Of a stretch of 28,478 nucleotides of DNA, positions 609 through 21,290 are shown one piece after another. How positions within the stretch are numbered: the first letter of the stretch is position 1; each line of letters begins with the position of its first letter. Under the pieces are notes generated by a model. It searched no databases, was not told the DNA's origin, and worked only from the letters and a program-made list of their open reading frames with translations. The position numbers and the translations under genes are program-made. The stretch is from a virus, in the IMG/VR virus record IMGVR_UViG_3300023180_000301, positions 1 through 28,478 of that record. The stretch is one strand, 5' to 3'.

Positions 609-804
609 TGTAATTAGTTTCTGTGACTATCGTCAAAAAAGAATCGAGGAACGTGCCATGGATGAACTGATCGATGAGATGTCAGAAGAAGAACTTGTTG
701 ACTTAGTTGCTGTTTTGTGCGAAACTAAAACTGTGTTAGATAATTATGAGATGGGTTCGTTTACGTTTACCCTTGAGATAGATGATACTAAAGACACCCC
801 TTAG
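601..804 (+). CDS. Small acidic hypothetical protein (67 aa)
   Basis: ATG 601 follows a good ribosome site (aaggagcg, about 590-597) and lies inside the end of the previous gene, overlapping it by 8 bases. The product is 67 residues, mostly helical and acidic, with a run MDELIDEMSEEELVDLVAVL. No family is recognised. A longer in-frame reading that starts earlier would overlap the DUF3310-like gene almost completely and has no ribosome site, so the short form is chosen. The 3' end overlaps the Dam methylase start by 23 bases. Confidence 0.6.
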   Translation: MGNVISFCDYRQKRIEERAMDELIDEMSEEELVDLVAVLCETKTVLDNYEMGSFTFTLEIDDTKDTP

Positions 805-1600
805 ATATCCCGGTGGCAAATCTCGTGCCACTAAAAAACTTTTTAGAAATCTTCCAGACTTCACGAGTTACAGAGAACCCTTCCTTGGTGGAGGGTCTTG
901 TGCTCTTGAGATCTCTCGTAGATATAACGTACCTGTATGGGTCAATGACAAATACTATAACTTGTATTGCTTTTGGAAACAACTGCAAGAAAACTCGATT
1001 ATGCTATATAACAGCATACTAGAACTCAAGGTCTCCGCAGAAAGTTATGAAGACACTAAGCAAGCACATAGAAACCTTTTTCTTGAAAGCAGAGAAGAAA
1101 TCTCTGGATGCTCTGATCCTTTTCGGATTGCTGTTCTTTTTTACGTGTGTAACAAGTGCAGTTTTTCTGGTCTAGGAGAGTCGAGCGGATTCTCTGCGCA
1201 AGCAAGTCAACAAAACTTTTCCTATAACAACATCCAAAAGTTAAAATTGTATGGTCCAGAAATAAAAGATTGGTTGATCACTAATCTTGATTACACTGAA
1301 GTTATAGATGGTACAGAAAGCGAGTTTATATTTGCTGATCCCCCTTATGATATCAAGTCTGGATTGTATGGTAAGAAAGGTGAGCACCATCTAACTTTTG
1401 ATCATGTAGAGTTTGAGAAAAACATGTCAGAAGTGAAATCTAAAGTTATGATTACATATAATTCAAATGCGGAAATTCGAGACCTATACAAAGACTGGAC
1501 TCAGGTTGAATGGGACTTGACATATACTATGCATTCGAGTAAGATATATCGTGTTGATGAAAAGAACCGTAAGGAATTGTTGATAACTAATTATGAATAA
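782..1600 (+). CDS. dam: DNA adenine methylase, D12 class (Dam-like)
   Basis: This 272-residue protein transfers a methyl group from S-adenosylmethionine to N6 of adenine in DNA. Motif order is that of the alpha group. PLRYPGGKS lies at residues 6-14, the SAM-binding EPFLGGGS at 32-39 (FxGxG-type), and the catalytic DPPY at 186-189, followed by HHLTFDH and a C-terminal LLITNY typical of Dam/DpnM enzymes. Length is close to T4 Dam (259 aa). The target cannot be read from sequence; GATC is the family default. Likely roles are protecting phage DNA from host restriction or marking it for replication or packaging. It overlaps the upstream gene by 23 bases and the next by 8. Confidence 0.92.
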   Translation: MILKTPLRYPGGKSRATKKLFRNLPDFTSYREPFLGGGSCALEISRRYNVPVWVNDKYYNLYCFWKQLQENSIMLYNSILELKVSAESYEDTKQAHRNLFLESREEISGCSDPFRIAVLFYVCNKCSFSGLGESSGFSAQASQQNFSYNNIQKLKLYGPEIKDWLITNLDYTEVIDGTESEFIFADPPYDIKSGLYGKKGEHHLTFDHVEFEKNMSEVKSKVMITYNSNAEIRDLYKDWTQVEWDLTYTMHSSKIYRVDEKNRKELLITNYE

Positions 1601-3503: not shown

Positions 3504-3635
3504 ATGCAACAAACAGAATTAAACATGGATGTTAAACTTGACGCACCTTACAACGGGTGGTTTTATTGCAGGATCCGCAACGGAATGTTTAGGTGGCCGC
3601 AATACATTTCATTTTATAAGAGGAATAGACTATGA
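3504..3635 (+). CDS. Small hypothetical protein (43 aa)
   Basis: ATG 3504 has an excellent ribosome site (aaaggagag at 3491-3499), and the stop TGA 3633-3635 overlaps the peroxiredoxin start by four bases (ATGA). The 43-residue product is aromatic- and Arg-rich in its second half (NGWFYCRIRNGMFRWPQY). No family is recognised. The clear ribosome site and the tight coupling to the next gene argue that it is real and heads this transcription unit. Confidence 0.6.
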   Translation: MQQTELNMDVKLDAPYNGWFYCRIRNGMFRWPQYISFYKRNRL

Positions 3636-4183
3636 TTAGAAAAGGTGATACCCTACCAGAATGTAACTTCCGCACACGAGTGCGAGACGAGTCAGTTGGA
3701 GGACCCAACCCTTACCGATGGGAAGACTTGACTACCGACGATTACTTTAAAGGTAAACGAGTTGTTTTGTTTGCTCTTCCCGGTGCGTTCACGCCTACGT
3801 GTTCGACGTTTCAGTTGCCGGGATACGAGCAGAAGTTTGAGGCATTTCAGAAGACTGGTATCGACGCAATCTATTGCTTGTCAGTCAACGATGCTTTCGT
3901 AATGAACGCATGGGCAAAAAGTCAAAACCTTGAGAACGTGGAGGTAATTCCTGATGGATCCGGATCTTTCACCAAAGCAGTTGGTGCGTTGGTTGATAAA
4001 GACAACCTTGGGTTTGGTTATCGCAGTTGGCGTTATGCATTGGTTGTTGATGATTGTGTAGTTGAAGCAGTTTTTCCTGAAGCAAGCATGCGCGATAACG
4101 CAGAGGACGACCCTTATGAAATCTCTTCGCCAGAGAATGTGCTGAACTACTGTCTAGGACATGCGAGGACAGAAGCAGCATGA
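3632..4183 (+). CDS. Peroxiredoxin (Prx5-like)
   Basis: This 183-residue protein has the peroxidatic motif PGAFTPTC, with P50, T54 and C57 forming the family PxxxTxxC active site. R in SWRYALVVDD fits the catalytic Arg. The PGAFTPTCS wording and the overall length fit the Prx5/AHP5 subfamily, in which C57 reduces H2O2 or alkyl peroxides and is restored by thiols. C11 and C174 could serve as resolving partners, but the sequence does not show which. In a phage this is an auxiliary metabolic gene that would limit oxidative damage during infection. It overlaps the small ORF before it and the gene after it by four bases each. Confidence 0.9.
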   Translation: MIRKGDTLPECNFRTRVRDESVGGPNPYRWEDLTTDDYFKGKRVVLFALPGAFTPTCSTFQLPGYEQKFEAFQKTGIDAIYCLSVNDAFVMNAWAKSQNLENVEVIPDGSGSFTKAVGALVDKDNLGFGYRSWRYALVVDDCVVEAVFPEASMRDNAEDDPYEISSPENVLNYCLGHARTEAA

Positions 4184-7294: not shown

Positions 7295-7617
7295 TGATTA
7301 TACATACTAATTCTCGCTACGATCTCAATGGTCGCAAACGTAAATCTCGTAAACCAAAAGGAGAAGTCTGTGCCAAGTATACGCCGCCTAAGTTCAAAGA
7401 GTACAAACCAAAAACTACGTATGCAATCGAACGTGCGGCAGAGGCAAAACGCTTCCCATCGTGCGTGGTTGCTCCAACAAAGGCGAGAGGAGACAAAAAA
7501 GAATCTCCAAGATACACCGGAGACTACGTCATCGGAATTGCCACTCTCCACAAATCTAACGCTGTTCCTGTAACCAATAAGGAATATGCCACTGAAATTT
7601 CTGCGATGATTAAATGA
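7294..7617 (+). CDS. Basic hypothetical phage protein (107 aa)
   Basis: The start is ATG 7294, coupled to the previous stop (TAATG). An in-frame upstream start at 7282 is less likely. The N-terminal half is strongly basic (RYDLNGRKRKSRKPKG), while the C terminus has the ordered segment YTGDYVIGIATLHKSNAVPV, which I recall as recurring in small proteins of marine T4-like phages. The role is unknown; the charge suggests nucleic-acid contact. It overlaps the radical SAM gene by four bases. Confidence 0.6.
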   Translation: MIIHTNSRYDLNGRKRKSRKPKGEVCAKYTPPKFKEYKPKTTYAIERAAEAKRFPSCVVAPTKARGDKKESPRYTGDYVIGIATLHKSNAVPVTNKEYATEISAMIK

Positions 7618-8564
7618 AGAATACGGATCTTGTAAAACAATTTCCTTTTCATCCTATCCGGATTGAACTAAACTTAACAGAACTGTGCAATTTACGTTGC
7701 GACTTTTGTCCTCGTGCGCATGACTATCCGAATCGTAATTTGCACATGAGCGAGGAAATGTTTGATCTGTTTCTTGACAGTCACATGGAGTTCACTGCAG
7801 AACATCATGCGAAAATGCAGATTCTTTTGATCGGCAGAGGAGAACCCACACTACACCCTCAGTTCAAACTTTTTCTTGATAAGTTACATGCTTATGACAG
7901 AGTGCTAAAGAAAAGATTTGGATGGGGGATAGGACTACAAATCCACACCAATGGACGTAAGTGGGAAGACTGGATTCCGGAATATTACAAAACTTTTACT
8001 TCGATTAATTTCAATTGCTATTCAGATAGAACCTATCCTGAGTACCTTGATATTCAAGAACAACTGAAAAAATATCCAAACGTTTTAGTTCAGGATCGTG
8101 GAGTCACTGGAAGGAATGAACCGAAAGTAGAAGTTAGAAAAACTATCAGTCGTGGTGAGACTAAAGTTTATTATAACAACCGTGCTGGATCAATTCCAGA
8201 TAACGTAATCCCTTTGAAGTCTCTCGAAGAAACGCATGATGTAATTTGCCACAAACCCTTTGATGTAATCTATCTAGATTGGGATGGAACTTGGAGAATT
8301 TGCTGTAATGACTGGGGAAATCCGTTAGAGAATAATTTCGGTGAAGACTTTGGTAATATTCAAGACATCAGCATTTCAGATCACATGTGGCGTAACCCTA
8401 AAATGAATGAATATCGATGGAGACTCTTAAAAGGAGACAGGTCTCTGACCCCTTGCGATAAGTGTAACGCAGTACCCCCGCCTGAATATATCGAACCGTT
8501 TACCCAACGATTCAATGAGATCTTAGACCTCAAACCTATATGGAAACCAGAACACTTAGATTAA
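7614..8564 (+). CDS. Radical SAM/SPASM-type enzyme
   Basis: This 316-residue protein has LTELCNLRCDFC, with C25, C29 and C32 forming the CX3CX2C motif that holds the 4Fe-4S cluster cleaving S-adenosylmethionine. Further TIM-barrel signatures are LIGRGEPTLHP (the GGEP-like motif) and IHTNGRKW. The C-terminal third has CHKPFDVIYLDWDGTWRICCNDWGN and a final CDKCN, the cysteine pattern of a SPASM/twitch auxiliary-cluster domain. Such enzymes modify peptides, sugars or RNA. No precursor peptide is obvious next door, so the substrate is unknown. It ends the P2 unit. Confidence 0.85.
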   Translation: MKNTDLVKQFPFHPIRIELNLTELCNLRCDFCPRAHDYPNRNLHMSEEMFDLFLDSHMEFTAEHHAKMQILLIGRGEPTLHPQFKLFLDKLHAYDRVLKKRFGWGIGLQIHTNGRKWEDWIPEYYKTFTSINFNCYSDRTYPEYLDIQEQLKKYPNVLVQDRGVTGRNEPKVEVRKTISRGETKVYYNNRAGSIPDNVIPLKSLEETHDVICHKPFDVIYLDWDGTWRICCNDWGNPLENNFGEDFGNIQDISISDHMWRNPKMNEYRWRLLKGDRSLTPCDKCNAVPPPEYIEPFTQRFNEILDLKPIWKPEHLD

Positions 8565-10991: not shown

Positions 10992-11447
10992 ATGATCAAT
11001 TTGCACTTTCACGGACGCATCAAGAATCGCAAAGCATACGAGCAGTTTGCTGAAGAGGTGATTGCTGAGTTGTTTCCACGTGAGTTCACCAAGCGTGAGA
11101 TCGATATCCACATCAAGTTTGCAATTGCTTGTGGACAGGGTGTGTTCGGGTACGCTTATCAGGGTGACCACGAAGACGAGTTCATTGTCGAGGTAGGCAA
11201 GATTGTCATTGACGGTGAGTTTCGTCAGCAGACTCCTCGTGAGATCGCAGCGACGATTGCTCACGAGTTGACCCACGTTCGACAGTATGTTCGACGTGAG
11301 TTAAACGCAACGATGACCCGGTGGAAGGGTCAGAAGGTTCCCTATGGTCCCCGTGGTGGTCTTAAGATCAAGTATCGCCAGCAACCATGGGAACAGGAAG
11401 CATTTGAGATGGAAGAATTTTTAACGGAGTTGTTATGGGCGCACTAG
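10992..11447 (+). CDS. HExxH zinc metallopeptidase-like protein
   Basis: The product is 151 residues. IAATIAHELTHVRQYVRREL contains HELTH, with zinc ligands H91 and H95 and catalytic E92, in a helix of the zincin type. About 40 residues later, QPWEQEAFEMEEF offers E134 or E136 as the third ligand. The order resembles small SprT- or ImmA-like peptidases; the specific family is not certain. A host or phage protein target in the cytoplasm is likely, since there is no signal peptide. It is first behind P4 and overlaps the next gene by 13 bases. Confidence 0.75.
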   Translation: MINLHFHGRIKNRKAYEQFAEEVIAELFPREFTKREIDIHIKFAIACGQGVFGYAYQGDHEDEFIVEVGKIVIDGEFRQQTPREIAATIAHELTHVRQYVRRELNATMTRWKGQKVPYGPRGGLKIKYRQQPWEQEAFEMEEFLTELLWAH

Positions 11448-11977
11448 TAGAACACGCCAAAGTCTGGGGTGCAATGAAGCACGTTGGACAAACCCGGAAG
11501 TATACCGGAGAACCTTACTTCACGCATTGTGAGGCAGTCGCAGAGCGTGTACAGGACTTCTACAAGACCATGCTTAACACGGAGGCACCAGACGAAGTCG
11601 TTGCTGCAGCACTCCTTCATGACGTTGTAGAGGACACTGACGCTACGTTTGAGGAACTGATTGAGATCGCTGGCGAGGAAGTCGCTAGATATGTTTATTT
11701 CCTCACAAAACCACCTGCTTACGCTGGTAACAGAAGTGTTAGGAAAGAAATCTACAACGGCAAGTTGGCACTGGCACCAATTCCTGTCAAAGTGATTAAG
11801 TTCTGTGATATGTACCACAATCACGGCAGCATTATGGAACACGATCCTCAGTTCTGGGTCAACTGGAGACAGGAAACTACGCGAGCAATTACTGCAATGG
11901 GAATTGCGTTTACACACAATGGTGCTTTGCTAGAGTGGGCACCAGAGTTTGTAACAAACCTTAGCAGGGGTGGGTGA
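11435..11977 (+). CDS. MESH1/SpoT-type HD hydrolase, predicted (p)ppGpp hydrolase
   Basis: This 180-residue protein matches the hydrolase half of RelA/SpoT enzymes as a stand-alone domain. RKYTGEPYFTH spans 21-31 with metal ligand H31, HDVVEDT has H62, D63, E66 and D67, GNRSVRKE has N98-R99, and IKFCDMYHN has D124 and N128. These are the Mn-binding and guanine-binding motifs of MESH1-like small alarmone hydrolases, which remove pyrophosphate from (p)ppGpp or the phosphate from NADPH. Lowering ppGpp would block the host stringent response and keep synthesis going. The last codons and stop lie within the tRNA-Tyr gene, an unusual overlap. Confidence 0.85.
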   Translation: MGALVEHAKVWGAMKHVGQTRKYTGEPYFTHCEAVAERVQDFYKTMLNTEAPDEVVAAALLHDVVEDTDATFEELIEIAGEEVARYVYFLTKPPAYAGNRSVRKEIYNGKLALAPIPVKVIKFCDMYHNHGSIMEHDPQFWVNWRQETTRAITAMGIAFTHNGALLEWAPEFVTNLSRGG

Positions 11978-12047
11978 GTGGTTAAAACCATCAGACTGTA
12001 AATCTGACGCGAGAGCTACGTTGGTTCGAATCCAACCCCCTGCACCA
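11964..12047 (+). tRNA. tRNA-Tyr (anticodon GTA)
   Basis: Acceptor strands GCAGGGG (11964-11970) and CCCCTGC (12037-12043) pair fully and are followed by encoded ACCA (12044-12047). The anticodon loop CTGTAAA sits between CAGA and TCTG, with GTA at 11998-12000. A long variable arm (acgcgagagctacg) and GGTTCGAATCC T-loop fit bacterial class II tRNA-Tyr. Its first 14 bases are also the end of the HD-hydrolase coding region. Confidence 0.93.
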
Positions 12048-12157
12048 TGTGCACGAGTATCCCGTTCGACTCTGACAGCGGGTGAGGGAAGTCTGACAGG
12101 CGCAACCCAATACAACCACAGGGCACTCTGACGAGAGGTATGCCAAGTCTGTCATCT
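12048..12157 (+). other. Spacer between the tRNA genes with repeated TCTGAC
   Basis: These 110 bases hold no ORF or third tRNA. TCTGAC occurs at 12071, 12092 and 12127 (and inside tRNA-Tyr at 12003), with TCTGTC at 12148. GGCACTC...GAGAGGTATGCC can form a small hairpin. It is probably a transcribed tRNA precursor spacer; any further RNA function is unsupported. Confidence 0.35.
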
Positions 12158-12236
12158 CGGGGTGTAGCTCAGTCTGGTAGAGCACTCGCTTTGGGAGCGA
12201 GGGGTTTCGGGGGTTCGAATCCCTCCACCCCGACCA
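12158..12236 (+). tRNA. tRNA-Pro (anticodon TGG)
   Basis: CGGGGTG (12158-12164) pairs with CACCCCG (12226-12232), followed by A and encoded CCA to 12236. The anticodon stem CTCGC/GCGAG holds loop TTTGGGA with anticodon TGG at 12192-12194. D-arm GCTCAGTCTGGTAGAGC and T-loop GGTTCGAATCC are normal. TGG reads all or most proline codons. Confidence 0.93.
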
Positions 12237-14901: not shown

Positions 14902-16302
14902 ATGGGCGCACTATCTAACAGAGAGATCTTAAAATCCGCAAGTTCTGGACCCTATGCAGGGAACGAACGTGAGGATATTTTTGCACTTAAAATTCGTGAT
15001 GGTAAGAAGTTTGTTCTGGGAAAAACAAAAAACGGAGAGGAGGTTGAAGGTGTCGCTTACGACAAGAAAACTAAACTCTTCACCTATAAAACCAAAAAAG
15101 GTGTAGAAACTGTTCCACTGACTAAGATCTTTAAGGACAAAGATTTTGGTGGTGGTTCTGGTTCAGGTGGTGGTGCAGAAGACACCAAGTACACAGAATC
15201 TCTTCAGTGCTATTACTGCTCATACGTATTCAACGTTGCAAAAAACAAAGTCAAGTCTATCTCAGACAAAGAATTAGAAAGTGCTACTGATTGGGTAGAT
15301 GCTACGGTTAGCTTAGCAGACGGTTTAAAGAACGGACCAAAAATTTGGATCGAAACAGATGTATATCTGAAAACCGCCAACAAACTCTGGGAACAATACG
15401 GACGCAAGATGACCAAGAACGGTAAGGTTTACTTTCACCGTGGGTCTAAGTTTATGAACAACGTTTATGCCGCCAAGAAAACGGTGCAGAAACTTGATCG
15501 AAAGCAGGAAAAACCTCAAGCACCCGGATCTTTCTCCGAAGACAAGTGGAACCCCGGTGACATTTGGGCATCTACTTTCGACAAAAATGAGAAACCTCTC
15601 GAAAATTTCACCTCCAGTTGGGGAGAACTCAACGCCGAAGTTTATCGACTCGCTCAGTCTGGAGAACTGCTTGGAATATCTCTCAAGAAAGTTGGTGCCA
15701 AGGCAACCCAAGCAACCTATACTGAATACAACGCACCTAAACTGACTGAACGGAAACAGAAATACACTCTTACGTATTTTACCTACGGTAGGACAGGAGA
15801 CTTCTTTAGTTCCCAAGACATCTATCTCACCACCAGTGAAGGACAGGTTCAGTTCCGAACCTTTGGTGGCGAAACGTCATGGCAGGGAGAGATCAAAGGA
15901 GGCGAAGCTGCCGGGGGTAAGATCGGTGGTGGTAACGTAGAGTTTTATTGTCAAGAAGTGTTTGGAAAAGGAATTTACGGACCTTATGACAACGAGAAAT
16001 CCTACCTTTCTCTCATTAAGTCAATGGAAAGGCAAGGTACTTTTGAAAAAGATTTATATAAGCAATATAAAAAACACAACGCCAAATCTATGCCTAGTGT
16101 AGATTTGTTGTCCGAAGGAGATTTTGTTGCTAGAGTCAAAGCAGCAACATACAACTGGAAGAACAGTAAAAAACTTTGTATGAATTTTCTTGACGTTTTG
16201 GAAGACGGTAGTGTAAAAGAGAAAAATGAATTCACAACTAAAATGTTTCGATATGCGCAATCTAACGCAGACCAGTCGAGTTACTTCGTAAAAATATCGT
16301 AA
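14902..16302 (+). CDS. Large phage protein of unknown function, glycine-linked two-part protein
   Basis: The product is 466 residues. Residues 1-80 are a beta-rich N-terminal unit (EDIFALKIRDGKKFVLGKTKNG). A flexible GGGSGSGGG linker lies at 83-91, followed by a long C-terminal part beginning with ESLQCYYCSYVFN. Within it, WNPGDIW (216-222) and LLGISLKKVG (256-265) resemble the P-D and x-x-K strands of PD-(D/E)xK nuclease cores, though the acidic residue before x-K is replaced by Ser. That reading is weak. The protein lacks a strong ribosome site; actaaatactaat precedes ATG 14902. A structural or DNA-processing role is possible. Confidence 0.5.
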   Translation: MGALSNREILKSASSGPYAGNEREDIFALKIRDGKKFVLGKTKNGEEVEGVAYDKKTKLFTYKTKKGVETVPLTKIFKDKDFGGGSGSGGGAEDTKYTESLQCYYCSYVFNVAKNKVKSISDKELESATDWVDATVSLADGLKNGPKIWIETDVYLKTANKLWEQYGRKMTKNGKVYFHRGSKFMNNVYAAKKTVQKLDRKQEKPQAPGSFSEDKWNPGDIWASTFDKNEKPLENFTSSWGELNAEVYRLAQSGELLGISLKKVGAKATQATYTEYNAPKLTERKQKYTLTYFTYGRTGDFFSSQDIYLTTSEGQVQFRTFGGETSWQGEIKGGEAAGGKIGGGNVEFYCQEVFGKGIYGPYDNEKSYLSLIKSMERQGTFEKDLYKQYKKHNAKSMPSVDLLSEGDFVARVKAATYNWKNSKKLCMNFLDVLEDGSVKEKNEFTTKMFRYAQSNADQSSYFVKIS

Positions 16303-16305
16303 TCG

Positions 16306-16313
16306 TATAAATA
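16306..16313 (+). promoter_or_regulatory. T4-type late promoter box TATAAATA
   Basis: TATAAATA is the exact T4 late -10 consensus read by the gp55 sigma factor, which uses no -35 box. It lies outside coding sequence, 4 bases after the previous stop, and would start RNA about 20 bases before ATG 16340. Confidence 0.65.
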
Positions 16314-16339: not shown

Positions 16340-17563
16340 ATGTTATCATTCGCAGACACATTAACAGAACAAAAGAATACGCACATGACTCACATCGAGG
16401 ACAAGGTGCTGTATGGTGGTGTTAATGGTACTCGCCAAGCAATCTTTGCCTTGCGAGATATGCGAGACATGCTTGCTGGAAAAAAAGATGGTAAAGTATC
16501 AGTCAAATGGGATGGAGCACCAGCAATCTTTGCTGGGACTGATCCAAGGGACGGGCAGTTCTTTGTTGCTAAGAAGGGAATCTTCAACAAAAATCCCAAG
16601 GTCTATAAGACCCCCGCAGAGATCGACGCAGACACGTCTGGTGATCTTTCTTCCAAACTTAAAGACGCTCTGAAGTACCTACCTGCTTTGGGTATCAAAG
16701 GGGTTATTCAGGGCGACTTTTTGTTTGGTCGTGGGGATCTATCCAGTGAAACCATTGATGGTAAAAAATACACAACCTTTCACCCTAACACAATCGTCTA
16801 CGCAGTGCCCGAAGAACAGGCAGCACCTGTCAAACGTGCCAAGATCGGTATCGTATGGCACACTACATATACAGGCAGCACGTTCGAAACCATGCGAGCA
16901 TCATATGGAGTCAATGTTGCCGGACTTAACAAATCAAACAATGTGTGGTCGCAAGACGCATTTTTACGAGATGTGACTAATGCTACTATGACAAAAAGGG
17001 AAACAGAAGATGTTAATGAAACTCTTACGGAAATTGGAAAACTCTTTAATCGCATCTCAGGTAGCACGTTACGACAACTGGAGTCAAATTCTGAACTCGC
17101 CCAACACATTGAAACCTACAACAACACCTTTGTCAGAAAAGGACAGGTCATCGGAAATGAAGTCGCACACACTGAAAAACTCATTCGATGGATCCACGGA
17201 AAGTACGGCAAAGAAATAGCAAAACGCAAAACTGCTGCAGGAAAAGCAACCCAACGAGATAAGCGAAACCAACTCCTTTCGTTTTTCTCGCTTAAGAATA
17301 AAGTGAATCTAATAGAAATGTTTCGATTACAAAAATTAATCGTAGTTGCGAAATTAAAACTTATAAATAAACTTAATCGATTGCAAAGTATCGATTCTTT
17401 CGTGAAAACCAAAAAAGGGTTTAAAGTAACGGGAGCAGAAGGATACGTTGCAATTGACAGACTTGGTGGTGACGCTGTGAAACTTGTTGATCGTATGGAA
17501 TTTTCATACAACAACTTTTCACCTGATATTTTGAAGGGATGGGATAAACCTAGTAGGAGTTAA
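16340..17563 (+). CDS. Ligase-like nucleotidyltransferase with capsid-targeting-like N terminus (DUF6267-like)
   Basis: The product is 407 residues. Residues 1-11, MLSFADTLTEQ, resemble a T4 capsid-targeting peptide. VSVKWDGAPAIFAG carries the KxDG motif with K56 as the predicted AMP-accepting lysine. GVIQGDFLFG and KIGIVWHTT fit the middle motifs, and EGYVAIDR (367-374) with VKLVDR (380-385) fits motifs IV and V of covalent nucleotidyltransferases, close to RNA ligases. This predicts ATP-dependent nucleic-acid joining or end repair. The central helical part (about 230-350) is lysine-rich. The family is otherwise a DUF in marine phages. It has only a weak ribosome site (gag). In-frame ATG 16385 would remove the leader. 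Confidence 0.7.
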   Translation: MLSFADTLTEQKNTHMTHIEDKVLYGGVNGTRQAIFALRDMRDMLAGKKDGKVSVKWDGAPAIFAGTDPRDGQFFVAKKGIFNKNPKVYKTPAEIDADTSGDLSSKLKDALKYLPALGIKGVIQGDFLFGRGDLSSETIDGKKYTTFHPNTIVYAVPEEQAAPVKRAKIGIVWHTTYTGSTFETMRASYGVNVAGLNKSNNVWSQDAFLRDVTNATMTKRETEDVNETLTEIGKLFNRISGSTLRQLESNSELAQHIETYNNTFVRKGQVIGNEVAHTEKLIRWIHGKYGKEIAKRKTAAGKATQRDKRNQLLSFFSLKNKVNLIEMFRLQKLIVVAKLKLINKLNRLQSIDSFVKTKKGFKVTGAEGYVAIDRLGGDAVKLVDRMEFSYNNFSPDILKGWDKPSRS

Positions 17564-17565
17564 AA

Positions 17566-17994
17566 ATGTTGTCGTTTAAAGACTTCATGACGGTAGAGTA
17601 CAAACCGGGAATGCCCGAACTTGTGAACTATGCCGCACACAAAAGACATCGTGGTCGTATCGGTGAGGAAGTCACCGATGAAGCACTCGACTTTCAGCAA
17701 AGACGTGCTAAATCACGTGCGATGAAAAAGAATAAAGCAAAGATTGCCATGGGTCGTAGACGTTCTGCGAAAAGAATGGCAAACACAGAGCGTCTTCAGA
17801 AACGAGCAAATCGTGCTGCTCGCGGAGTTCTCTTCAAAAAATACGCAAAAGGAAAGTCGAAGGACGAATTGCCTTTTGCTCGTCGGCAAGAAATAGAAAA
17901 GAAATTAGATAAGATGAAAGGCAGACTTTCGAAGATTGCCCGTAAACTTATGCCCGATATTCGTAAGAAAGAGAAAGAAAGAAGATCAGCATGA
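17566..17994 (+). CDS. Highly basic capsid-targeted-type protein (142 aa)
   Basis: This starts MLSFKDFMTVE, a capsid-targeting-like leader. After a short neutral part there is an acidic site, GEEVTDEA (33-40). The rest is extremely basic: RRAKSRAMKKNKAKIAMGRRR and RLQKRANRAARGVLFKK, ending in KKLDKMKGRLSKIARKLMP. About a third of all residues are Lys or Arg. This recalls basic internal head proteins such as those of T4, which are packed with DNA. Cutting after E39 would free the basic DNA-binding part. A ribosome site (taggag) lies 6 bases before ATG 17566. Confidence 0.65.
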   Translation: MLSFKDFMTVEYKPGMPELVNYAAHKRHRGRIGEEVTDEALDFQQRRAKSRAMKKNKAKIAMGRRRSAKRMANTERLQKRANRAARGVLFKKYAKGKSKDELPFARRQEIEKKLDKMKGRLSKIARKLMPDIRKKEKERRSA

Positions 17995-19178
17995 TACCTT
18001 CGTTTAAACAGTATCTCGTTGAGGAAGAACGCGAGATATTTTTTACATTTGGACGCATGAACCCACCAACTATCGGACACGGTAAGTTGATGGATGTTCT
18101 GTCCCGAAAAGCAGGACGTAACCCTTACAAGGTGTACCTGTCCCAGTCTTCAGATCCGAAGAAGAACCCACTGACCTACGAGAAAAAGGTGAAGCATGCT
18201 CGAAAAATGTTTCCAAAACATGCTCGTAATATTCTAATCAGCAAGAACGTTAAGACTGTTTTCGATGCAGCAACGGGTCTTTTCGAACAGGGATATAAGC
18301 GCGTCACTATGGTAGTGGGTGCTGATCGTATCACTGAGTTCGAGACTCTGCTCAACAAGTACAACGGTGTCAAAGGCAGACATGGGTTCTATAACTTCGA
18401 GAAGATCTCTATTGTCTCCGCTGGTGCGCGTGATCCTGATGCCGAAGGTGTCGAAGGGATGAGTGCCAGCAAACAACGCCAGAATGCTGCCAATAATGAT
18501 TTCACAACATTTTCACAAGGTGTTCCTCAGAAAATGTCTAATAACGATGCTCGCAAACTTTTTAACGATATTCGAGTAGGCATGGGACTGAAAGAAGCAA
18601 AATCGTTTAAGCAACACGTTGACTTAGGAACTGTTAGTGAGGCACGTGAAAAATACATTAATGGAGAACTTTTCGAACCCGGTGATCGAGTTACTGTATT
18701 AGAATCAGATAAGAGCGGATACATCTACCGCTTGGGTTCCAATTATGTTATTGTAGCATTAGATGAAGGAAGAATCACTCGTCAATGGTTGGAAGGAATA
18801 ATCCACGAAAAATCTGAAAAGAGTACGGATCGCTGGTATAAAGATCAACCTGAATGGGGAACACCAGAAGCAACTAAGCATGCTGAACGTCATCACAAAA
18901 AGATGGAACGTGAAAACGTAGACCCTGTTAAAGCAGTAAAAGACAAAATTAACAGAGAAAAAGAAGTAGATAAACGCAAGTACGATCAAATGTTAGATCG
19001 TGCTCGTATTGCTCGTGCGCGAGCAAAAAATATAAAAACTGACCCCACTGCAAAAAAAGAATCTACTAAAAACCCCGTTGCCAAGTTTGCTCATAAATTC
19101 AACAAGGCAAAAGTAGAACCAGATAAGAAGAAGGAAGCGAAGAAGGGTTATACTAAACACAAGAAAAATTATAAATAA
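17991..19178 (+). CDS. NMNAT/cytidylyltransferase-like protein fused to a second capsid-targeted-type module
   Basis: The product is 395 residues. The leader is MIPSFKQYLVEE, then EIFFTFGRMNPPTIGHGKL, the GRxxPxTxGH motif of nucleotidyltransferases of the HxGH type, as in NMN adenylyltransferase. VTMVVGADRITEF is the later strand, and GMSASKQRQNAA the ISTxxxR-like motif, all within about residue 170. At 203-218 a second leader-like unit appears, AKSFKQHVDLGTVSEA. An SH3-like part follows (FEPGDRVTVLESDKSGYIYRL), then a basic lysine-rich tail. The layout suggests two formerly separate capsid-targeted genes. It may make or repair NAD in the host after ejection, which is inference. Confidence 0.7.
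   Translation: MIPSFKQYLVEEEREIFFTFGRMNPPTIGHGKLMDVLSRKAGRNPYKVYLSQSSDPKKNPLTYEKKVKHARKMFPKHARNILISKNVKTVFDAATGLFEQGYKRVTMVVGADRITEFETLLNKYNGVKGRHGFYNFEKISIVSAGARDPDAEGVEGMSASKQRQNAANNDFTTFSQGVPQKMSNNDARKLFNDIRVGMGLKEAKSFKQHVDLGTVSEAREKYINGELFEPGDRVTVLESDKSGYIYRLGSNYVIVALDEGRITRQWLEGIIHEKSEKSTDRWYKDQPEWGTPEATKHAERHHKKMERENVDPVKAVKDKINREKEVDKRKYDQMLDRARIARARAKNIKTDPTAKKESTKNPVAKFAHKFNKAKVEPDKKKEAKKGYTKHKKNYK
19170..19177 (+). promoter_or_regulatory. Possible late box TATAAATA at the end of the previous gene
   Basis: TATAAATA overlaps the Tyr-Lys-stop codons of the gene ending at 19178 and lies only 6 bases before ATG 19184. A transcript from it would have almost no leader, so it may be chance coding sequence rather than a working promoter. 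Confidence 0.3.
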
Positions 19179-19183
19179 ATACT

Positions 19184-19729
19184 ATGAAATCATTTAAAGA
19201 AGCAACAGTAAAAGTCCCCATGGGGAAGTTTAAAAACCTAGCAAAGACTATTGCTGTTGGAACCATTGAAAAGTCTTCGGAAAAGAAAGTAATGGGGTAT
19301 CTTCAAGCAATGGGTAAAAAGGTACGATTGGAAAGAGATCCCAATTCTAGATCCGGTTTTCGGGTTGTGATTGAAAAGTCTGTTTCTAAGAGTCAACAAA
19401 GATTCATGGGTATGGTGCGAGCGGTACAGAAAGGCGATATGAAAGCACCGTCACCAGAAGTTGCGAAAGCAGCAAAGAGCATGAAAAAGAAAGATGTTAA
19501 GGATTTTGCGTCAACTAAACATAAAGGACTACCAGAGATGAAAACATTTAGAGAAATGCGCGAAGGTGCAATGTCAAAGGATAAAGAGAAACACGATACT
19601 GGTGGTTTTCGCATTTCTAATGCTGATGCCAAAGCAGCACGTGATCGTCTTGCCGCAAAGCGAAAGCAGAAAGCACAAAAGTCTGCTTCACAGAACAAGT
19701 CTTTTAGTAACGTAAGAGATCGCATGTAA
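19184..19729 (+). CDS. DUF3008 protein with capsid-targeting-like leader and a second internal leader
   Basis: The product is 181 residues. The leader is MKSFKEATVKVPM. The central part, SKSQQRFMGMVRAVQKGDMK followed by SMKKKDVKDFASTKHKGLPE, is the DUF3008 signature. Residues 119-128, MKTFREMREGA, look like another capsid-targeting leader with its own ATG (19538) and an aaagga upstream, so internal initiation is possible. The end is basic (DAKAARDRLAAKRKQKAQK). DUF3008 has no proven role. The arrangement suggests two small modules joined in one reading frame, cut by the prohead protease. Confidence 0.65.
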   Translation: MKSFKEATVKVPMGKFKNLAKTIAVGTIEKSSEKKVMGYLQAMGKKVRLERDPNSRSGFRVVIEKSVSKSQQRFMGMVRAVQKGDMKAPSPEVAKAAKSMKKKDVKDFASTKHKGLPEMKTFREMREGAMSKDKEKHDTGGFRISNADAKAARDRLAAKRKQKAQKSASQNKSFSNVRDRM

Positions 19730-21012
19730 TGAAATCGTTTTTTGACCTAAGAGAAAACAAGCAGATAACCGAAGCGGTTAAGGTATCTCGTAAAGACTTT
19801 GACAAGTTGAAGAAAGGTTCCATGATCACAATTGATTATGGTTCATCTGTTAGTCGTAGCAATAAACGTACTTTTATGGTAAAGGGTAAATCACGCAGTG
19901 CAAAGTACAACGTTGATAAGATCAACATGGTTGATCCTCAGAAACCCGGTGGAATGAAGTTCCATCTTTATAGTCGAAATGGAGAGGACGCAACCCTTGC
20001 ATTGGGCGATATGGGCGCAACCATCAATTCGTACAGCATCAAAGAGGAAGTCGAGCAGGTCGATGAAAGCATAGTGTCCGATTACAAAGAGTTAAAGGCA
20101 AAGGGCAAGAGGGACAGTGCAATCATCGATATTATGATGAGTATGTCAAAATATAGACGAATGAATCGTGACCAACTGGCGAAAAAGATTGGTGATGCTA
20201 AACGAAAAGGCATGTTTAGAGAAAAAGTAGAAGAGGCACTTAAAACCAGTGATTATCCCAAGGGAACCTCGATGTCTGCTCAGAAGTTCAAAGATTCTCA
20301 GAAAAAGATGAGCAAACAACGTGCTTTGACTACCAAAGACTATCCCAAAGGCACCTCGATGTCTGCCACTGCTTGGAAGAACAAACAAGAAGAAGTAGAA
20401 CTTGATGAAAGATCTCGTGAAGACGATATTAAAAAGACTATTTCGATTATGAAAAAGTACCCTGCAAACAAAAATAAATCGGAAAAAGAATTGAGGAAGG
20501 GTGCTATTGCTTATCTTGATCAATATAAAAAAGAAGAAGTTGACGAAGCAAAAGTTCGTGGTGCTGATGCATACGACAAGACATTTGCGAATCGTAAACA
20601 AGCAGATAAGTTTGCTCGTGAAATGGGCGGACGTGTTAAGCAAGTTGGTAGAGTCTTCTATGTGTTCAAAGAGTCAGTTGACGAAGCATCCATCCTGAGA
20701 ACCAAGACTACACGAAAGCAATCTGATGCGTCAAAAGAGAAAGACAGGAAGAAAGCAGTGAAGACCTTTCAAGACATCAGAAAGGGTAAGTATTCCGGTG
20801 TTAAGATTGGTGAAGAAACACTTGACGAAGCATCCATTCAGGACATCAAGGATATTCTCACCACTATTGCTAAGTCACAGAACATGAACCAAGCGGTTCA
20901 GATGGTGATGAAGAAGTATAAGGTTGACCAAGGCAAAGCAAAAGCAATGGTCAAGAAGGCAATCGATTCTGGTGTCACATACGATAAGATTAAGAAAAAG
21001 TATGCAAAATGA
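19729..21012 (+). CDS. Modular basic polyprotein with repeated acidic cleavage-like sites
   Basis: The product is 427 residues. It starts with the leader MKSFFDLRENKQITEA, then has blocks of 45-110 basic residues divided by acidic sites. These are ITEA at 13-16, EEVEQVDES at 106-114, EEVELDERS at 221-229, EEVDEA at 269-274, ESVDEA at 315-320 and EETLDEA at 362-368. Each has a hydrophobic residue two before E and A, S or R after it, close to the T4 gp21 rule (L/I)xE followed by A/G/S. The block 175-220 contains DYPKGTSMSA twice. I infer a head-internal precursor cut into small basic proteins. Confidence 0.6.
   Translation: MKSFFDLRENKQITEAVKVSRKDFDKLKKGSMITIDYGSSVSRSNKRTFMVKGKSRSAKYNVDKINMVDPQKPGGMKFHLYSRNGEDATLALGDMGATINSYSIKEEVEQVDESIVSDYKELKAKGKRDSAIIDIMMSMSKYRRMNRDQLAKKIGDAKRKGMFREKVEEALKTSDYPKGTSMSAQKFKDSQKKMSKQRALTTKDYPKGTSMSATAWKNKQEEVELDERSREDDIKKTISIMKKYPANKNKSEKELRKGAIAYLDQYKKEEVDEAKVRGADAYDKTFANRKQADKFAREMGGRVKQVGRVFYVFKESVDEASILRTKTTRKQSDASKEKDRKKAVKTFQDIRKGKYSGVKIGEETLDEASIQDIKDILTTIAKSQNMNQAVQMVMKKYKVDQGKAKAMVKKAIDSGVTYDKIKKKYAK
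20251..20367 (+). repeat. Internal duplication: DYPKGTSMSA encoded twice
   Basis: Codons at 20251-20280 and 20338-20367 both encode DYPKGTSMSA, 29 codons apart. The four base differences between the copies are all synonymous, so the peptide has been kept by selection after duplication. Confidence 0.75.
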
Positions 21013-21290
21013 AATCGTTTAAGTTTTTTTGCGAAGACGATGCATCAGGGTTGTCTGTTAAGAAAGGACACAAGTTACCTGTATCAAAAGGTGCAGGACT
21101 GACTAAAAAGGGTGTTGCGGCATATCGCAGAAAGAATCCCGGATCTAAGTTGCAAACAGCGGTTACGACAAAACCAAGCAAATTAGATCCTGATAGTAAA
21201 GCAGCAAAGAGACGAAAGTCTTTTTGTGCAAGGTCTAGAGGATGGACAGGCGAACGAGGAAAGGCAGCTAGGAGAAGGTGGAACTGTTAA
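21009..21290 (+). CDS. DUF6321-like protein with capsid-targeting-like leader
   Basis: The product is 93 residues. The leader is MKSFKFFCEDDASG. The rest reads GVAAYRRKNPGSKLQTAV, then KRRKSFCARSRGWTGERGKAARRRWNC, the order of DUF6321 phage proteins: a Y-R-R-x-N-P-G-S-x-L turn, KRRxSFCARS and a final R-R-W-N-C. The very basic content fits a DNA- or RNA-contacting head-internal protein. The family has no assigned function. It overlaps the gene before it by four bases and the next by one. Confidence 0.7.
   Translation: MKSFKFFCEDDASGLSVKKGHKLPVSKGAGLTKKGVAAYRRKNPGSKLQTAVTTKPSKLDPDSKAAKRRKSFCARSRGWTGERGKAARRRWNC

What the first reader, a model, noticed from the sequence alone, without database searches (positions are those of the whole stretch)
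16340..17563. Ligase-like enzyme carrying a head-targeting leader
KWDG (K56), EGYVA (367-371) and KLVDR (381-385) match motifs I, IV and V of covalent nucleotidyltransferases, nearest to RNA ligases. A packaged enzyme of this type could repair RNA or DNA at the moment of entry, for example tRNAs cut by host defence nucleases. This combination is not described to my knowledge.
Basis: partly seen in the sequence, partly recalled or inferred. Interest (0 to 1): 0.7.

Follow-up and report, generated by a model that had tools for sequence, protein, structure and literature searches.

The report
Head-packaged ligase-like enzyme of marine phages
A protein of unknown function shared by hundreds of marine T4-like viruses looks like a DNA/RNA-joining enzyme, and in this virus it carries a short tag of the kind that loads proteins into the virus head, so the virus probably injects it with its DNA; both the joining activity and the loading still need a bench test.

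Summary
The ORF is real and the motifs sit where stated: K56WDG, E367GYVA, K381LVDR. It is Pfam DUF6267 (344 bits), found in 467 phage records, function unknown. Across 64 sequences down to 28% identity, K56, D58, G59, Q124, D126, E367, G368, V370, K381, V383 and R385 are invariant. Two confident AlphaFold models retrieve DNA ligases, RNA ligases and capping enzymes (29 of the 50 best PDB matches for the short form), but no match is significant (best E 0.13). No sequence profile links it to a ligase, and motif V is KxVxR, not KxK.

The leader is well supported. In 78 of 79 relatives it ends in [I/L]xE exactly where leaderless homologues begin. A matrix made from these leaders retrieves T4 internal proteins II and III, and in cyanophage S-SM1 only the neighbouring nucleotidyltransferase, a virion protein by mass spectrometry. 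That leader-bearing neighbour was detected in virions of four cyanophages; leaderless DUF6267 was absent from the three data sets I could check.

DUF6267 phages nearly always lack standard ligase families. Best reading: a head-delivered, ligase-type covalent nucleotidyltransferase beside a packaged NMNAT-like enzyme. RNA-ligase kinship and tRNA repair are not shown.

The parts
16306..16313 (+). TATAAATA, T4-type late promoter box, 26 bases before the start codon
   Evidence: present in 10 of 79 relatives against 1.2 in shuffles, so not conserved
16340..17563 (+). DUF6267 protein, 407 aa, ligase-like covalent nucleotidyltransferase candidate
   Evidence: Pfam PF19782 344 bits; alignment; models
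16340..16369 (+). capsid-targeting-like leader MLSFADTLTE, predicted prohead-protease cut after E10
   Evidence: 78 of 79 relatives end in [I/L]xE here; matrix retrieves T4 IPII and IPIII
16505..16516 (+). motif I, K56WDG, predicted AMP-accepting lysine
   Evidence: K56, D58, G59 invariant
16709..16717 (+). motif III-like Q124-G-D126 (Asp for the usual Glu)
   Evidence: Q124 and D126 invariant; in strand 122-129
16784..16801 (+). motif IIIa-like P149-N-T-x-x-Y154
   Evidence: P149, N150, T151, Y154 invariant; strand 152-157
16994..17383 (+). helical insertion, residues 219-348, between motifs IIIa and IV; shorter in many cyanophage forms
   Evidence: secondary structure of the models; alignment
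17438..17452 (+). motif IV, E367-G-Y-V-A371
   Evidence: E367, G368, V370 invariant
17480..17494 (+). motif V-like K381-L-V-D-R385
   Evidence: K381, V383, R385 invariant; second Lys of the canonical KxK is absent
17566..17994 (+). small basic protein with leader-like start MLSFKDFMTVE
   Evidence: leader score 8.8
17991..19178 (+). NMNAT-like (cytidylyltransferase-like) protein, T4-GC190 relative, leader MIPSFKQYLVE at 17991-18023
   Evidence: phrog_395; HIGH-type motif GRMNPPTIGH; leader score 13.6; orthologues in virions
14902..16302 (+). gene directly upstream, phrog_1462, function unknown, no leader

Best explanation
The gene encodes a ligase-type covalent nucleotidyltransferase core (motifs I to V around K56) with a helical insertion and no OB domain, fused to a T4-type capsid-targeting leader. 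The leader takes it into the prohead core, the prohead protease cuts after LTE10, and the mature enzyme (starting QKNTH) is injected with the genome. In the cell it takes AMP onto K56 from ATP or NAD+ and seals breaks in nucleic acid, beside a co-packaged NMNAT-like enzyme encoded two genes downstream. Leaderless homologues would do the same job after being made in the infected cell. Shown: the family, the invariant motifs, the leader and its tie to virion presence for the neighbouring gene, and the genetic linkage. Inferred: fold class (strong hint only), AMP transfer, packaging of this particular protein, nucleic-acid substrate.
For: Invariant K56-x-D-G, E367-G-x-V, K381 over 64 diverse sequences. 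Confident models whose best PDB matches are dominated by DNA ligases, RNA ligases and capping enzymes (18 of 50 and 29 of 50 by my count). DUF6267 phages have PF01068 in 0/10, PF01653 in 0/15, PF09414 in 1/15, Rnl1 above cut-off in 0/10, while T4-type enterophages have PF01068 and Rnl1 in 20/20 and DUF6267 in 0/20. Leader: 78 of 79 end in [I/L]xE at the domain start; its matrix finds T4 IPII/IPIII and, in S-SM1, only the virion protein T4-GC190. Leader-bearing neighbour in virions of four phages, leaderless DUF6267 not. Prohead protease PF03420 present in 5/5. NMNAT-like gene downstream in 252 of 256 loci of four clades.
Against: No structural match is significant (best E 0.13). No profile link to any ligase. 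Motif V lacks the second Lys and motif III has Asp for Glu. No OB or other C-terminal domain. No proteome of a leader-bearing DUF6267 phage was found. The NMNAT-like neighbour is absent in the Bellamy-type clade, 0/52. Host ligases may suffice for phages that lack their own.
Confidence: 0.45

Rival explanations
1. One reading: an RNA ligase that repairs tRNAs cut by host defence nucleases at the moment of entry.
For: RNA ligases are among the structural matches (Naegleria ligase, T4 Rnl2, TbREL1, archaeal Rnl). The phages carry tRNA genes. Known anti-tRNase repair by T4 Rnl1 (general knowledge; PMC9503650).
Against: DNA ligases rank higher. No profile similarity to Rnl1 or Rnl2. No polynucleotide kinase or end-healing partner was identified beside it; the conserved partner is NMNAT-like.
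Confidence: 0.17
2. A DNA nick ligase that replaces the missing gp30-type ligase in marine T4-like phages; the leader in some clades merely delivers it early.
For: DUF6267 phages lack PF01068 and PF01653. In many cyanophages the gene lies in the replication module near gp43, uvsX, gp41 and gp61. Best structural matches are DNA ligases.
Against: No OB domain or motif VI; host ligase could serve; in Bellamy-type, S-CREM2 and S-SCSM1 phages the gene lies elsewhere.
Confidence: 0.22
3. A nucleotidyltransferase that is not a polynucleotide ligase: it moves AMP or another nucleotide onto a small molecule or protein, in one pathway with the NMNAT-like neighbour (for example NAD+ upkeep against NAD-depleting defence).
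For: Tight linkage with an NMNAT-like gene and apparent fusion of both domains (phrog_455; a 591-aa S-PM2 entry). Incomplete motif V and no nucleic-acid-binding C-terminal domain.
Against: Structural neighbours are all polynucleotide ligases or capping enzymes; the neighbour is absent from one clade.
Confidence: 0.2
4. The leader is not a head-targeting signal, and the protein acts only inside the infected cell.
For: DUF6267 was not reported in a virion in the papers read; many homologues have no leader.
Against: The same leader with the same LxE end marks proteins that are in virions, is found on neighbouring genes of C48C1 within about 11 kb, and its end coincides with the domain start in 78 of 79 relatives.
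Confidence: 0.15
5. Fold coincidence: KxDG and EGxV belong to an unrelated fold and the protein is not a nucleotidyltransferase.
For: No Foldseek match below E 0.001 and no sequence link.
Against: Matches to one superfamily dominate both lists from two models of sequences about 30% identical, and the superfamily's motif residues are the invariant ones.
Confidence: 0.12

Closest known systems
Pfam DUF6267 (PF19782), T4-GC71 of marine T4-like phages
   Same: Full-length membership, same invariant residues, same gene neighbourhood in most clades.
   Different: This clade adds a capsid-targeting-like leader that most homologues in phage records (cyanophages) lack.
Covalent nucleotidyltransferases: DNA ligases, RNA ligases, mRNA capping enzymes
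   Same: Order of motifs I, III, IIIa, IV and V, probable core fold.
   Different: Motif V KxVxR instead of KxK, Asp in motif III, helical insertion between IIIa and IV, no OB domain, no profile similarity.
T4 internal proteins IPII and IPIII (capsid targeting sequence)
   Same: Leader M-x-x-[F/Y]-x-x-[F/Y]-I-x-E, with a cleavage-type LxE/IxE end; T4-type prohead protease present in relatives.
   Different: Cargo is a large, enzyme-like protein rather than a small anti-restriction or unknown protein.
Virion-associated cytidylyltransferase/NMNAT-like protein of cyanophages (T4-GC190)
   Same: Neighbour gene, same leader type, head cargo.
   Different: Different superfamily (HIGH-type nucleotidyltransferase); its virion presence is measured, that of DUF6267 is not.

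Membership tests
DUF6267 (PF19782) | Profile match above the curated cut-off | tested here: met
   344 bits, cut-off 27, residues 13-394
Covalent nucleotidyltransferase superfamily | Motif I KxDG with invariant Lys | tested here: met
   K56, D58, G59 invariant
Covalent nucleotidyltransferase superfamily | Motif IV EGxV | tested here: met
   E367, G368, V370 invariant
Covalent nucleotidyltransferase superfamily | Motif V KxK | tested here: not met
   K381-x-V383-x-R385 invariant; second Lys absent
Covalent nucleotidyltransferase superfamily | Nucleotidyltransferase core fold | tested here: inconclusive
   Best PDB matches dominated by the superfamily, but best E 0.13
Covalent nucleotidyltransferase superfamily | Lys-AMP (or GMP) intermediate | not testable with these tools
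   Needs purified protein
RNA ligases Rnl1 (PF09511) / Rnl2 (PF09414) | Sequence profile similarity | tested here: not met
   hhalign not significant; no Pfam match in 56 members
RNA ligases Rnl1 (PF09511) / Rnl2 (PF09414) | Family-specific C-terminal domain after motif V | tested here: not met
   Chain ends about 22 residues after motif V
ATP-dependent DNA ligases (PF01068) | OB domain with motif VI after the core | tested here: not met
   No domain follows motif V
T4-type head cargo with capsid-targeting leader | Short N-terminal leader ending in a prohead-protease site LxE/IxE | tested here: met
   78 of 79 relatives; matrix retrieves T4 IPII and IPIII
T4-type head cargo with capsid-targeting leader | T4-type prohead protease in the same genome | tested here: met
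   PF03420 in 5 of 5 related genomes tested; the window itself is a fragment
T4-type head cargo with capsid-targeting leader | Late expression | tested here: inconclusive
   TATAAATA upstream here, in 10 of 79 relatives
T4-type head cargo with capsid-targeting leader | Protein found in the virion | not testable with these tools
   No proteome found for a leader-bearing DUF6267 phage; leaderless forms absent from S-SZBM1, S-CREM2 and S-SCSM1 data

The most novel reading that the evidence does not exclude
DUF6267 is an NAD+-using polynucleotide ligase without the usual accessory domains, packaged in the head together with an NMNAT that turns the released NMN back into NAD+: a self-recharging nucleic-acid repair kit injected with the genome.
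Probability: 0.1. Interest if true: 0.85.

Novelty: new variant of a known kind. Interest (0 to 1): 0.62.

Why it matters
DUF6267 is carried by hundreds of sequenced marine T4-like phages and has no assigned function. If it is a ligase-type enzyme it would explain how phages lacking the standard ligase families join nucleic acids. If packaged, it would be, as far as I found, the first ligase-like enzyme delivered in a phage head. The leader rule also gives a simple, testable way to list head cargo in marine phages, and it fits the virion data available.

Tried and rejected
Sequence links to ligases: phmmer and profile search of the PDB, Pfam and PHROG scans of 56 members, hhalign against Rnl1, Rnl2 and T4-type DNA ligase alignments; all negative or not significant. 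PADLOC and NCBIfam: no useful hit for this protein. The jumbo Vibrio phage homologue as query found no further loci. A conserved late promoter was not found: TATAAATA stands upstream of the gene here but in only 10 of 79 relatives. Bacterial and archaeal contigs with DUF6267 come mostly from metagenome bins and are probably phage sequence; not pursued. Supplementary Table S8 of the S-SM1 proteome could not be read, so whether T4-GC71 is listed there is unknown; the text names only T4-GC15 and T4-GC190 as virion proteins among cyanophage core genes.

Full report
What is there. The ORF at 16340-17563 (+) encodes 407 aa. It is a full-length member of Pfam DUF6267 (344 bits) and of PHROG 455, both without function. 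tblastn finds it in 467 phage records, mostly Synechococcus and Prochlorococcus T4-like phages, with 68% identity to Phage C48C1. It is T4-GC71 of cyanophage annotations. No paper in the library mentions DUF6267.

Motifs. KWDG, EGYVA and KLVDR lie at 56, 367 and 381. In an alignment of 64 relatives down to 28% identity the invariant columns include K56, D58, G59, P61, Q124, D126, P149, N150, T151, Y154, H174, T175, Y177, E367, G368, V370, K381, V383 and R385. This is the motif order I, III, IIIa, IV, V of covalent nucleotidyltransferases (motif definitions from general knowledge), with two departures: Asp for Glu in motif III and K-x-V-x-R instead of K-x-K in motif V. A loose pattern of this order picks out only this family plus one false positive among 146 long ORFs.

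Fold. AlphaFold with the alignment gives pLDDT 88.8 for the window protein and 90.6 for a 298-aa cyanophage form. Strand order agrees with a ligase core split by a helical insertion (219-348 in the window protein); the chain ends one helix after motif V, so there is no OB or other C-terminal domain. I take the fold class as likely, not proven. Sequence profiles show no link to any ligase family.

Absence of other ligases. T4-type enterophages have PF01068 DNA ligase and Rnl1 in 20 of 20 genomes and DUF6267 in 0 of 20. DUF6267 phages have PF01068 in 0 of 10, Rnl1 over cut-off in 0 of 10 (one sub-cut-off hit), NAD-type ligase PF01653 in 0 of 15 and PF09414 in 1 of 15, a Vibrio jumbo phage. Several of these records are partial, and host ligase could serve, so this is circumstantial.

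Leader. In 78 of 79 relatives of the window's clade the protein starts with a short variable segment that ends in [I/L]-x-E directly before the conserved K-N-T-H region; in the other one my script picked an internal start. Leaderless cyanophage forms start just there (M-x-K-N-T-H-L-E-H and similar). A scoring matrix built only from these leaders was applied to every ATG-start ORF in the stretches fetched. In 13 kb of T4 its two best hits are the internal proteins II and III (MKTYQEFIAE; identity of the genes, sequences). In 172 kb of S-SM1 its single hit is the T4-GC190 nucleotidyltransferase (MKKFSAFLNE). In C48C1 the five scores above 7 lie in one cluster, about 57-68 kb, around DUF6267, with one marginal hit (6.0) elsewhere. 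Internal windows exceed the score threshold at a rate of 1 in 10,000. T4 IPI (MKTFKEFTS...) is not found by the matrix. More distant homologues on other contigs (38-73% identical) carry leaders such as MYSFKQYLNE and MKKFNQYIIE at the same place.

A natural control. The neighbouring nucleotidyltransferase bears this leader in S-SM1, S-SZBM1, S-SCSM1 and S-CREM2 and was detected in virions of all four (PMC3037559; PMC9146016; PMC9602691, and record notes; PMC10665884). The DUF6267 proteins of S-SZBM1 (141), S-CREM2 (gp87) and S-SCSM1 (257) have no such leader and are absent from the two tables and not labelled as virion protein in the third record. The leader therefore tracks virion presence in the data available, though the number of proteins is small, the proteomes are of limited depth, and the authors themselves note that carry-over of abundant proteins is possible. 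No proteome was found for a phage whose DUF6267 carries the leader.

Neighbour. The NMNAT-like gene lies downstream of DUF6267 in 71/73, 61/61, 64/64 and 56/58 loci of four clades and in 0/52 of the fifth. In the window clade all 70 readable copies carry the leader. PHROG 455 spans both domains and a 591-aa S-PM2 protein in BFVD appears to fuse them, although the older S-PM2 record annotates two genes. The nearest solved structure by profile is the archaeal protein MJ0541 (E 0.083, not significant), which is an NMN adenylyltransferase (general knowledge).

Expression. TATAAATA, the T4 late-promoter box, lies 26 bases before the start codon. It is present in 10 of 79 relatives against 1.2 in shuffles, so it supports late expression here but is not a conserved feature.

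Mechanism. Best supported: late synthesis, entry into the prohead core by the leader, cleavage after LTE by the prohead protease (PF03420 found in 5/5 relatives), injection with the genome, then AMP transfer through K56 and sealing of nucleic-acid breaks beside the NMNAT-like partner. T4 precedent: internal proteins are loaded by a capsid targeting sequence and act on host defence on entry (PMC3012670). Packaging and cleavage of this particular protein, and every later step, are inferred. The protein should be called a DUF6267 protein that probably works like a ligase-type nucleotidyltransferase; it should not be filed as an RNA ligase, because motif V, profile similarity and domain make-up were tested and not met.

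Noticed in passing
L082 (Phage C48C1), record positions about 57,300-68,400: Several different proteins with the same leader type sit in one cluster (matrix hits at about 57,300, 61,827, 63,080, 64,854 and 68,091, plus the GTG-start NMNAT-like gene at 63,448): probably an internal-protein locus that could list head cargo.
   Followed up: partly
window 19184-19729, 19729-21012, 21009-21290: Three further genes start with MKSF-type leaders (MKSFKEATVKV, MKSFFDLREN, MKSFKFFCED) that fall below the matrix threshold; the first and last carry DUF3008 and DUF6321.
   Followed up: no
window 11435-11977: Protein with HD-type motifs (YFTHCEAVAE, LLHDVVEDT) that looks like a small (p)ppGpp hydrolase; judged by eye only.
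   Followed up: no
window 7614-8564: Radical SAM protein, best NCBIfam match twitch-domain radical SAM at sub-cut-off score.
   Followed up: no
window 782-1600: Dam-type adenine methyltransferase relative, below the curated cut-off.
   Followed up: no
window 3632-4183: Peroxiredoxin-like protein, sub-cut-off matches.
   Followed up: no
window 11964-12236: tRNA-Tyr and tRNA-Pro genes.
   Followed up: no
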